Positions 35,216 through 43,404 of a stretch of DNA of 43,404 nt are shown here, in pieces. How positions within the stretch are numbered: the first letter of the stretch is position 1; each line of letters begins with the position of its first letter. The notes beneath the pieces were generated by a model. That model had not been told where the DNA came from. It saw only the letters and a list, made by a program, of their open reading frames with translations, and made no database searches. This DNA is from Desulfobacterales bacterium. GTDB lineage: Bacteria; Desulfobacterota; Desulfobacteria; Desulfobacterales; Desulfosalsimonadaceae. Location: contig JAGYOX010000010.1 in NCBI GenBank assembly GCA_018399235.1, positions 1 through 43,404 on the forward strand. The letters are read 5' to 3'. A program made the translations under genes and the position numbers.

Positions 35216-35758
35216 ATGCAAACATCGGTGACTTTCAAAAACATTGAGCCCTCCGACACCCTCAAATCATATGTGACGAGCAAGCTTGAAAAGCTCGACA
35301 AGCTGCTGGATAACCCCGCAGAAGCCAATGTGGTGTTGTCGGTGGAAAAAATCAGGCATATTACTGAAATCAAACTCCTCGGTGACCGATTGAACCTCAA
35401 TTGCAGGGAAGAGTCAAACGACATGTATTCCTCCATTGATTTAGCACTCGATAAATTGGAAAAACAAGTCAAAAAAAACAAGCAGAAAAACCGTAAGCAC
35501 CGGCAGGGCCCACGGGAAGAGCGCAAAGAAATGCCCCTGCAGGAAACTGAAAACCCGGGACGCGGAGAAGACTATTCGAACCCACGGATAAGGATTCAAA
35601 ATATTGAGTATAAACCAATGGATATTGAAGAAGCCGGTATGCAGCTTGAACTGACACCGGACAGCTTTCTTGTTTTTACCAATGCACGGACCAATCAGAT
35701 AAATGTCATATATCGAAGAAATGACGGTGACCTGGGATTAATTCAACCGCTTTCATAA
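35216..35758 (+). CDS. hpf: Long-form ribosome hibernation promoting factor
   Basis: A 180-residue protein. The N-terminal HPF/YfiA domain (about residues 1-95; VTFKNIEPSDTLKSYVTSKL) and a charged linker (about 96-130) lead to a C-terminal dimerisation domain (EYKPMDIEEAGMQLELTPDS; VIYRRNDGDLGLIQP). Long HPF silences ribosomes as 100S dimers in stationary phase. GGGAGG precedes the ATG. Confidence 0.95.
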   Translation: MQTSVTFKNIEPSDTLKSYVTSKLEKLDKLLDNPAEANVVLSVEKIRHITEIKLLGDRLNLNCREESNDMYSSIDLALDKLEKQVKKNKQKNRKHRQGPREERKEMPLQETENPGRGEDYSNPRIRIQNIEYKPMDIEEAGMQLELTPDSFLVFTNARTNQINVIYRRNDGDLGLIQPLS

Positions 35759-40579: not shown

Positions 40580-41755
40580 TTATAAAGAATTAGCCGTAAT
40601 CTTAACAGGTTGCGGCTTTTCTATTTTTGGAGGGTGCATATAGGGTGCGGATTGGCCCATTTCATCCAGGCGGTTGACAGCTCCTCGGTTGCTGCTCGGA
40701 ATAAGGTGGCCGTAAATGTCAACCGTGATATCAATGCTTGAATGACCCAACTGTTCCTTGACGTACACCGGGCTTTCCCCGGCGGTAAGAAGTAGGCTTG
40801 CATAAGTATGCCGTGTAATATGCAGCTTCTGTTCCCGCAAACCAGCTTTTTTCAAAACCCTTTTAAAGACTCGCCGGATGAACTTCTGATCCATGTAATC
40901 ATTGTACCGATGGAAGATGATTTCAAACGGTTCTCCCCTGCCCTGTTTTAACGACTCTTTTTTCCGTACCGTATAAAGTTTTTTCAATTCAGAAATTAAT
41001 TGATCCGACATATCCACAAGGCGAGTTTTGTTGTTTTTGGGTTTGTTGATAACCCCGCGCCGGAACGATCGCTGCACTTTGATATTTTTTTTGTTCCAGT
41101 CAATATCCGGCCAATGCAGGGCTATCAATTCGCCCGATCTCATACCTGTCCGAAAGGCACAAAGGAAAAATGAATAATACTCGGGTAGCATCTTTGAACA
41201 GGTCTGCATGAACAGATTAATTTCTTCGGCTGTCATTGGCTCAATTGCAAGTTTCCTTTCCCGGTCCAGCTGCAGCCTCTTAATAATCCCTGTTACCGAA
41301 TTTGCAGGGATAAGTTCATCATCAACGGCATACCCCATCACCCCGCTGCAAACATCTCTTATTAAACAGAGGATAGACCTGGAATAGCCGTTTTTATGCA
41401 TCTCCAATAAAAGGTTCCTGATGTCACCGCGCCGGACTTCATCAATAGGTTTCTTGCCAATCGCCGGTTTAATGTATCGGTCCAGGATGTCCTTATACCG
41501 TTCATGCGTTGACGGCCTCCGCAATGGTTTGATGTACCCTTCAAGCCACATTTCAGCGTATTCATCAAACACCGGCGCCTTTGGTTTTTCATCCATTGAA
41601 TAATTACCGATTTTTAAACGCTCGGTAATTTCCTTTGCGACTTTCTCCGCGGTCTCTTGATCACCAATTCGTTTTGATTTCCTCCGCCCTTGGTTGTTTA
41701 TAAATACCCACCAGACACCTGACCCAGGCGGTTTCTCTCTGACTTTCACCCCCAT
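40580..41755 (-). CDS. Tyrosine-recombinase integrase of a tRNA-targeting island
   Basis: A 391-residue protein. An N-terminal arm-type DNA-binding region (KVREKPPGSGVWWVFINNQG), a SAM-like core-binding domain (about residues 65-155), and a catalytic domain with Arg206 (GMRSGEL), His312-x-x-Arg315 (HITRHTYASLLL), His338 (LGHSSIDIT) and Tyr348 (DIYGHL). The ATG at 41755 has AAAGGAGG upstream and is preferred over a TTG five codons earlier. Its stop lies one base past the tRNA CCA, so this integrase marks the left end of an element inserted in tRNA-Leu. Confidence 0.93.
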   Translation of the reverse strand: MGVKVREKPPGSGVWWVFINNQGRRKSKRIGDQETAEKVAKEITERLKIGNYSMDEKPKAPVFDEYAEMWLEGYIKPLRRPSTHERYKDILDRYIKPAIGKKPIDEVRRGDIRNLLLEMHKNGYSRSILCLIRDVCSGVMGYAVDDELIPANSVTGIIKRLQLDRERKLAIEPMTAEEINLFMQTCSKMLPEYYSFFLCAFRTGMRSGELIALHWPDIDWNKKNIKVQRSFRRGVINKPKNNKTRLVDMSDQLISELKKLYTVRKKESLKQGRGEPFEIIFHRYNDYMDQKFIRRVFKRVLKKAGLREQKLHITRHTYASLLLTAGESPVYVKEQLGHSSIDITVDIYGHLIPSSNRGAVNRLDEMGQSAPYMHPPKIEKPQPVKITANSL

Positions 41756-41779
41756 GCAGCCTCCTTTCAATAATAAAAA

Positions 41780-42495: not shown

Positions 42496-42765
42496 TTAAT
42501 TTTCCTGCATTGACGCAGCAATTTCAGAAAGTTTTCCTCTGATTACTGCTTGGAGTTCTGGTTTGAAACTGGTAAGAATCGCCTCAATTATCGAAACATC
42601 GAGTTCCCCTCCAATTGAAGCCCACCAGTCCGTCAATCCCTTGGCTGCTTCAATCGCTTGCCAATTGTCACAGGCGCCTTTAATCTTTTCAAGATACTGT
42701 TGGAACATCCTATCAATAGATTTTTCCTCAAGGCTCTCAATTCTTTTTCTCATTGCTATAGACAT
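42496..42765 (-). CDS. Island small protein, unknown
   Basis: An 89-residue protein, mostly helical and rich in Glu, Lys and Ile, with the segment GACDNWQAIEAAKGLTDWW. No family recognised. GTGAGG lies 8 nt before the ATG, and it follows the upstream gene by 6 bp, so the pair is very likely one operon. Confidence 0.65.
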   Translation of the reverse strand: MSIAMRKRIESLEEKSIDRMFQQYLEKIKGACDNWQAIEAAKGLTDWWASIGGELDVSIIEAILTSFKPELQAVIRGKLSEIAASMQEN

Positions 42766-42771
42766 AGATCC

Positions 42772-42975
42772 TCACTCTTTTTTATTAATACATTTCTCAA
42801 TTTCCGACACGCGCTGCTCCAAGTCGCTGTCTTTTATGCAGCTAATCAATATATTGCTGATATAAGCTAACTTGGAGGCTGTTTGCTGGTCAATTTGCTG
42901 GCCTTCCACCCGGTTTATCAGGCCGGCCAAGTATCGCCTGATGTCCCCAAGGGTTTTTAACCGCTTTTTCGCCAT
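42772..42975 (-). CDS. Island small helical protein, phage/island-type, unknown
   Basis: A 67-residue protein with a basic N-terminus (MAKKRLKTLGDIRRYLAGL) and two helices ending in an Asp-Leu-Glu-Gln-Arg coiled-coil-like tail (DLEQRVSEIEKC). Proteins starting with a similar 'lysine-rich, DIRRYLA, QxASKLAYISNIL' arrangement occur beside terminase or replication genes of prophages and islands, from memory and not checked. Function unknown. Confidence 0.6.
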   Translation of the reverse strand: MAKKRLKTLGDIRRYLAGLINRVEGQQIDQQTASKLAYISNILISCIKDSDLEQRVSEIEKCINKKE

Positions 42976-43130
42976 TTTTTGTGTCCTTTATCCGGGCATT
43001 AGGCCCGATTTTGTAACCTTTTTATAAATTCAGTATTTGCCGTTTCTGAGTCTTCCAGGGGGGAGCCCCCCTTATGGCTCTATAGCCTTAGCCATGAATT
43101 TAAAGCCGCGGGCAATTTTATAATAAAGAA
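42976..43130. other. Gap with GC-rich hairpin
   Basis: 155 bp between the small-gene pair and the transposon end. GGGGGG (43058-43063) and CCCCCC (43066-43071) can fold, and an alternative GAGCC/GGCTC pairing overlaps. It could be a two-way terminator. It would include the promoter of the minus-strand pair. Confidence 0.3.
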
Positions 43131-43193
43131 TGTCAAGCGACAATTATTTTTGAAGTTTGACGACAATTATAATTGAGGTCTGGCGACAATTAC
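43131..43193. repeat. Three 23-bp direct repeats (putative transposase-binding sites)
   Basis: Units begin GTCAAG, GTTTGA and GTCTGG, each followed by CGACAATTA and an A/T-rich tail. The first is the terminal one. Exact spacing with a conserved 9-bp core and variable flanks suits protein binding on one helix face. Confidence 0.7.
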
Positions 43194-43327
43194 AAAACCC
43201 TCAATTATTACCTAAAACTCTCAGTTTTCAGCTTCTCTGTTTGTCCCGTCTTCTACTTTTTATAATCTGCTTTGCAATTTTATCGATATATATGCTATGT
43301 CATCACCGCCTGTTCCGGAGGATAGGG

Positions 43328-43402
43328 CCATGCTGGGAAGCAACCCGAGCGCCGGATCAGGCGACCGAAGCATGGGCCGTGCGCTTTTGCACGGCCCTTT
43401 TT
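43328..43402 (+). ncRNA. Candidate structured RNA / leader with three-way junction and terminator
   Basis: CCATGCT (43328-43334) pairs with AGCATGG (43369-43375). Inside it are two small hairpins, GGG-AAGCAA-CCC and CGCC-GGATCA-GGCG, giving a three-way junction that leads straight into a terminator. A promoter-like TTGCAA (43272-43277) and an extended -10-like TGCTATGT lie upstream. It matches no riboswitch or RNA family I know. An overlapping ATG frame (43330) with GGAGGA 7 nt upstream is an alternative reading. Confidence 0.35.
43374..43402 (+). terminator. Intrinsic terminator at the window edge
   Basis: GGGCCGTGC and GCACGGCCC form a perfect 9-bp stem with a 6-nt loop (GCTTTT), followed by TTTTT. 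It is directional for the plus strand. Its place about 240 bp inside a transposon end suggests protection from outside transcription. Confidence 0.85.
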
Positions 43403-43404
43403 CT

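What the first reader, a model, noticed from the sequence alone, without database searches (positions are those of the whole stretch)
43131..43193. Transposon end with three exactly 23-bp-spaced CGACAATTA repeats
The sequence starts TGTCAAGCGACAATTA, and CGACAATTA recurs at 43138, 43161 and 43184. Such TGT-starting ends with several transposase sites are known for IS21-family elements and for Tn7/Tn5053-type elements, including the CRISPR-associated type V-K ones, whose ends look alike in layout. Everything from 43131 to the window edge would then be inside the element. The other end and the transposase lie outside, so IS21 versus Tn7-like (and any cargo) is open. A plain IS21 copy is the commoner case.
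Basis: partly seen in the sequence, partly recalled or inferred. Interest (0 to 1): 0.6.

Follow-up and report, generated by a model that had tools for sequence, protein, structure and literature searches.

The report
IS21 transposon end with hidden RNA
The repeats are one end of an ordinary jumping gene of the IS21 family, but just inside that end lies a conserved RNA-like unit, absent from the public RNA catalogue, that is also carried by unrelated jumping genes in many bacterial phyla.

Summary
CGACAATTA occurs three times, exactly 23 bp apart, and nowhere else in the window or as a spaced pair in the genome. Position 43131 is a real boundary: in six loci the similarity starts at TGTCAAG and the DNA to its left is unrelated. 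The contig ends 274 bp inside, so the element's interior is missing here. The nearest relative (G002:C261, 92% identical) continues inward into istB. A related complete copy (G034:C383) has istA, istB and the same 23-bp sites at its ends. This is therefore the istB-side end of an IS21-family element. Tn7-like or type V-K CAST has no support.

What was not foreseen lies at 43305-43404: a structured element with an invariant core, a covarying stem, a nested terminator, a family-wide promoter signature and a conserved 3' tail. It has no Rfam match. An exact-pattern scan found 101 further copies in at least eight phyla, including an archaeal record. They sit preferentially next to transposase genes, and inside several multicopy transposons of unrelated kinds. 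I read it as a transposon-borne small-RNA gene. Transcription is unproven and its function is inferred. It may match an uncurated 2010 motif candidate, which I could not check.

The parts
43131..43137 (+). Terminal bases TGTCAAG: outermost end of the IS21-family element (istB side); flank AAGAA lies just outside
   Evidence: Six loci share sequence only from here rightwards
43138..43146 (+). Terminal site 1, CGACAATTA (inferred IstA site)
   Evidence: IS21 ends are known to hold multiple direct repeats bound by IstA (PMC10122671)
43161..43169 (+). Terminal site 2, CGACAATTA, 23 bp further in
43184..43192 (+). Terminal site 3, CGACAATTA, 23 bp further in; G002:C261 has four such sites
43272..43301 (+). 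Weak promoter candidate of the RNA element: TTGCAA, 18 nt, TATGTC
   Evidence: Read by eye. The -10 and -35 signature is clear across the family, but the consensus scan did not call this copy
43305..43367 (+). Conserved structured RNA domain: stem P1 (43307-43318 with 43352-43363) enclosing the invariant core
   Evidence: Model R1 match 43304-43366, 74.8 bits, E 2.1e-16, but the window copy is among the 57 training sequences; P1 inverted repeat
43317..43353 (+). Core GGAGGATAGGGCCATGCTGGGAAGCAACCCGAGCGCC
   Evidence: Core columns invariant in 57 aligned copies; most loci were chosen by an exact core pattern, so part of this invariance is by selection
43362..43404 (+). 5' arm of outer stem P2 with nested intrinsic terminator (stem 43374-43397, then TTTTTCT); 3' arm and tail AAAGCGATAAAYCC lie beyond the contig end
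   Evidence: Terminator; P2 and tail in relatives

Best explanation
Positions 43131-43404 are the istB-side end of an IS21-family insertion sequence cut off by the contig edge. The TGT terminus and three CGACAATTA sites 23 bp apart are the array of IstA binding sites: IstA (a DDE transposase) assembles on the repeats of both ends, cuts at the terminal CA, and inserts the element into target DNA prepared by the AAA+ ATPase IstB. Binding and cutting are inferred from published IS21 work; only the anatomy is shown here. Between the site array and the 3' end of istB the element carries an inward-pointing structured RNA gene (stem P1 with an invariant internal loop, a second stem P2 with a nested terminator, and a conserved tail). 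I infer it is transcribed from its own promoter into a small stable RNA of about 95 nt, or about 130 nt if the terminator is read through. Its most likely role, at low confidence (about 0.4), is to bind a conserved host factor and thereby damp or insulate expression of the transposon genes.
For: Boundary and repeats. istB inside the same end in G002:C261, 92% identical over 266 bp. Complete sister element G034:C383 with istA, istB, the RNA element and the same 23-bp sites. IMG/VR L033 has istA-istB and the same TGTCAAGCGACAATTA terminus at the istB side (istA confirmed, istB read by eye from its translation). IS21 ends are published as multiple direct repeats, two being needed for integration (PMC10122671). 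RNA: P1 covariation, 144 double-change cells against 73 in shuffles, 0/500; P2 stem mean score 8.9 against 5.5 for mismatched partners; tail score of 11 or more in 49 of 64 loci against 10 of 1280 shuffles; -10 at -20..-15; inside multicopy elements.
Against: The window holds no istA or istB, and the istB of this kind is not in the genome assembly (best match 31% identity), nor is the istA-side end. Four of the six loci with this terminus in relatives are solo or truncated ends, so this copy could be a relic. No transcription data for the RNA; the window copy's promoter is weak. The RNA points inward in IS21 but outward in the IS3 and AAA+ elements, which weakens a pure insulator role.
Confidence: 0.88

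Rival explanations
1. It is an end of a Tn7-like, Tn5053-like or type V-K CRISPR-associated transposon.
For: Such elements also start with TGT and have several spaced transposase sites (general knowledge; PMC10122671 notes the likeness of IS21 ends to Mu and Tn7 ends).
Against: Relatives with the same terminus have istB or istA-istB inside. No TniQ in the genome, but that search matched in no control genome, so it carries little weight.
Confidence: 0.03
2. The end is a relic: a solo terminus left after loss of the IS21 interior, not part of a complete element.
For: G001:C7 (two), G015:C63 and G002:C158 hold only about 25 bp of this terminus followed by other sequence, without istA nearby. No matching istB or istA-side end in this assembly.
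Against: The window keeps three sites plus 200 bp of interior at 92% identity to G002:C261, and the contig breaks inside it, as repeated elements usually cause.
Confidence: 0.35
3. The RNA-like element is only a 3' transcription terminator of insertion sequences (a 'mobile attenuator' in the sense of Naville and Gautheret 2010), not an RNA gene.
For: It contains a good intrinsic terminator and sits 3' of transposase genes. IS terminators are known to be conserved and exapted (PMC2965389).
Against: A terminator needs no conserved core across phyla, no covarying promoter-proximal stem, no promoter signature and no conserved sequence beyond the terminator. In IS21 it points the wrong way to terminate istAB.
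Confidence: 0.25
4. The RNA-like element is a DNA site (for example a target or a recombination or replication site) that transposons insert next to.
For: Nested palindromes; association with many IS families; the only evidence for RNA is comparative.
Against: In several multicopy families the motif lies inside the mobile unit, once with target duplications outside. The promoter signature at a fixed distance suits transcription.
Confidence: 0.15

Closest known systems
IS21 family (istA-istB elements such as IS21 and IS5376)
   Same: istA with integrase core and Mu-type C-terminal domain plus istB AAA+ ATPase in relatives; ends made of multiple direct repeats; TG...CA termini; 5-6 bp duplications in a sister IS21.
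   Different: Extra 200-700 bp between istB and the end holding a structured RNA element; three to four sites of 23-bp period at this end.
Tn7-like and type V-K CAST ends
   Same: TGT start and several spaced transposase sites.
   Different: Relatives carry istAB, not tnsB/tnsC/tniQ/cas12k.
'Mobile attenuators' / IS-borne terminators (PMC2965389)
   Same: Conserved terminator-containing structures carried by insertion sequences of several families.
   Different: Those are terminators clustered within Enterobacteria and bacilli; here there is an upstream structured domain with a conserved core, a promoter signature and a 3' tail, across phyla.
Uncurated 2010 candidates 'Transposase-resistance', 'Rhodopirellula-1', 'Solibacter-1' (PMC2864571)
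   Same: Their names and taxa (several phyla; Proteobacteria and Planctomycetes; Solibacter) overlap ours; no Rfam accession is listed for them in the table.
   Different: Unknown: their sequences are only in supplementary files that could not be read here; identity was not tested.
IS110 bridge RNA, TnpB/IscB omega RNA, IS10 RNA-OUT
   Same: RNAs encoded inside insertion sequences (general knowledge).
   Different: Each of those is tied to one transposon type; this element occurs in or next to several unrelated types.

Membership tests
IS21 family | istA transposase gene | tested here: met
   Met in relatives, not in the window: L049 and L043 ORFs hit Mu-transpos_C_2 above its cut-off and rve just below its cut-off. 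The window stops before any gene.
IS21 family | istB ATPase gene | tested here: met
   Met in relatives: G002:C261 1.2e-25 inside the 92%-identical end; L049 3.6e-64.
IS21 family | Ends with multiple direct repeats | tested here: met
   Three sites, 23-bp period in the window; four in G002:C261; published for IS21.
IS21 family | Inverted counterpart at the other end | tested here: inconclusive
   Seen in relatives (TGATCAGCGACAATTA before istA); no such end in this assembly.
IS21 family | Target duplication of 4-8 bp | not testable with these tools
   Only one end of this copy is present. A sister IS21 in G001 has GTACA and TATGGG duplications.
Tn7-like / CAST | tniQ in the genome | tested here: inconclusive
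   No PF06527 match, but none in the control genomes either.
Known Rfam RNA family | Score above gathering threshold | tested here: not met
   None for the window (evalue mode), seven relatives (evalue mode) or eight diverse loci (gathering).
Structured RNA | Compensatory base changes | tested here: met
   P1 9 of 12 pairs with double changes, covariation score 0.266 against 0.121 in shuffles; P2.
Weinberg 2010 'Transposase-resistance' motif | Same consensus sequence and structure | not testable with these tools
   Alignment only in supplementary files.

The most novel reading that the evidence does not exclude
A previously uncatalogued class of structured small RNA, with its own promoter and a core kept across at least eight phyla, travels inside unrelated transposons (several IS21 types, IS3, AAA+-bearing elements; also found beside IS110, IS256-like and others), implying a common host factor that transposons exploit or evade through one RNA.
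Probability: 0.5. Interest if true: 0.78.

Novelty: new variant of a known kind. Interest (0 to 1): 0.5.

Why it matters
As an IS21 end the finding is ordinary. The RNA element inside it is not: one conserved RNA-like unit recurs inside unrelated transposons, so it probably speaks to a host process that matters to all of them (transcription termination, RNA decay, translation or control of transposase level). If real, it gives a single small, clonable RNA with which to ask how transposons of different families regulate themselves or their host, and a new family for RNA annotation. It also adds non-coding content to IS21, a family used as a model for AAA+-controlled transposition.

Tried and rejected
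Plasmid collection search with 43131-43404: only four weak partial matches at E 0.8. Rfam Leu_leader and SorX matches are far below gathering score and rejected as chance. IS elements elsewhere in this genome (C133 istAB, C212, C97, C1) were checked for the missing interior: istB of a different kind or fragments. Empty-site search with the flank 42760-43130: only a 76% partial match in G003 that ends before the junction. A small-protein reading of the core was rejected because copies differ by single-base indels in the loop and stem. A pseudoknot between the core GGAU and the tail AUCC was considered and dropped because tail variants AAACCC break it. A riboswitch reading was dropped because nothing downstream is consistently controlled: the next gene is usually convergent. 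The first L033 istB query was translated in the wrong frame, so its istB tblastn lines are void. The census of a second phylum failed because only G handles are accepted as centre.

Full report
The repeats. CGACAATTA lies at 43138, 43161 and 43184, start-to-start 23 bp, and nowhere else in the window; shuffles give 0.43 on average and never three. No other pair of that spacing exists in the genome. The window is the whole contig G000:C2, so the DNA ends 274 bp inside the boundary.

The boundary. Searching relatives with 43131-43404 and with the first 23 bases gives six loci that share sequence only from TGTCAAG rightwards, with unrelated left flanks. That makes 43131 a terminus. In the nearest one, G002:C261, the match covers 266 bp at 92% identity with four sites instead of three, and the contig goes on to the 3' part of istB on the opposite strand (PF01695 1.2e-25). 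G002:C245 and G003:C266 show the other end of such elements, TGATCAGCGACAATTA followed by the istA start. G034:C383 has a complete sister: TGATCAGCG end, istA, istB, the RNA element, and the end with two CGACAATTA sites 23 bp apart. An IMG/VR contig, L033, ends at the istB side with TGTCAAGCGACAATTA and a second CGACAATTA 23 bp on (its istA is confirmed, its istB I read by eye). Published work states that IS21 ends consist of multiple direct repeats and that IstA needs two of them for integration (PMC10122671). Whether this copy is intact is unknown: the assembly holds no istB of this kind and no istA-side end, and four loci in relatives are solo or truncated ends.

A second, separate thing inside the end. 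The relatives search also returned many hits to only the last 110 bases of the window, in 14 of 60 genomes and in varied settings. Aligned copies share the core GGAGGATAGGGCAA-YGCTGGGRAGCR-ACCCGAGCGCC inside a stem of changing sequence. A pattern scan of one genome per species gave 101 loci. The titles shown (80 of them) cover Desulfobacterota, Planctomycetes, Verrucomicrobia, Acidobacteria, Firmicutes, Hydrogenedentota, Armatimonadetes, Gammaproteobacteria and one Methanophagales archaeon; many are metagenome bins, so some host labels may be wrong. Because these loci were picked by an exact core pattern, the core's invariance is partly by selection; the stem, promoter and tail were not in the pattern and are fair tests.

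Tests of the RNA reading. On 57 distinct copies the named structure has 144 cells with changes on both sides against 73 in shuffles (0 of 500 reach it), and sliding the partner columns lowers pairing from 82% to 38-50%. The second stem, P2, pairs better within loci than between loci (mean 8.9 against 5.5; 66% against 15% reach 8). Upstream, aligned on the core, a -10 signature T-A-N-N-N-T stands at -20 to -15 with a T-rich -35 about 17 nt before, and a purine at the predicted start, -8. Beyond P2 a tail AAAGCGATAAAYCC scores 11 or more in 49 of 64 loci against 10 of 1280 shuffles. No Rfam family matches. The window copy has the terminator 43374-43397, but its promoter is weak and its P2 3' arm and tail are cut off by the contig end.

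Where it sits. Among 75 nonredundant loci, near ORFs include IstB, IS110, IS3-type integrases, Mutator, IS66, ISL3 and AAA_22 proteins. Among 48 ORFs lying convergent downstream the tallies give six IstB, five IS110 and four rve hits, with further ones in the other three sets. Among 96 control ORFs more than 3 kb away, no transposase family matched two or more members; single matches beyond the 25 families shown cannot be excluded. In several multicopy units the element lies inside the mobile DNA: NaphS2 IS21, a 2963-bp unit with the RNA core 108 bp from the end; G001 IS21, about 2.9 kb with duplications GTACA and TATGGG, RNA between istA and istB; a Deltaproteobacteria E21 element (seven copies, RNA core 96 bp from the end; its transposase is not seen), a Pirellula IS3 and a Clostridium element next to an AAA_22 gene. 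It points inward in the IS21 elements and outward in the IS3 and AAA_22 ones.

Mechanism. Shown: anatomy, boundary, family, structure conservation, association. Inferred from IS21 literature: IstA binding to the sites and cut-and-insert with IstB. Inferred without direct evidence: that the element is transcribed and that the RNA binds a conserved host factor to damp or insulate transposon gene expression. The rival that it is only an IS terminator (as in PMC2965389) explains the terminator but not the core, promoter signature or tail.

Known or not. The IS21 end is a known kind. For the RNA, Rfam 15 and the held literature gave nothing, but the 2010 list of candidate RNAs names 'Transposase-resistance' (several phyla), 'Rhodopirellula-1' and 'Solibacter-1' with no Rfam accession listed; I could not read their alignments, so identity with one of them stays open at perhaps one in four.

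Noticed in passing
window 43305-43404: Structured RNA-like element with conserved core, also in 101 other loci across phyla, not in Rfam; treated in the report as part of the element.
   Followed up: yes
L045 (G001:C7:545994), L046 (G001:C7:55122), L047 (G015:C63:42655), L164 (G002:C158:35695): Solo or truncated IS21 termini: about 25 bp of TGTCAAGCGACAATTATTTTTGAAG followed by other DNA and no istA nearby; how such short ends arise is unexplained.
   Followed up: partly
L027 / G002:C158 about 35641-35695 and onward: IS21 end fused to a broken copy of the RNA element, next to repeated CGTTCCCACGCTT-type sequence and an ORF that by eye looks like a REP-associated (Y1) transposase.
   Followed up: no
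window 40580-41770: Tyrosine integrase gene (PF00589, 6.1e-26) followed by two small unassigned ORFs (42496-42765, 42772-42975, both -, no Pfam match): possible integrated element next to the IS21 end.
   Followed up: partly
L051 2208-2336: Copy of the RNA element in an IMG/VR viral contig with a fully different P1 sequence that still pairs.
   Followed up: partly
L080, L063, L107, L131, L136, L054 just 3' of the tail: Beyond AAAGCGATAAATCC many copies also share CGGGGGTTTGGGGGC..GCCCCC, a third hairpin; it may belong to the same unit.
   Followed up: partly
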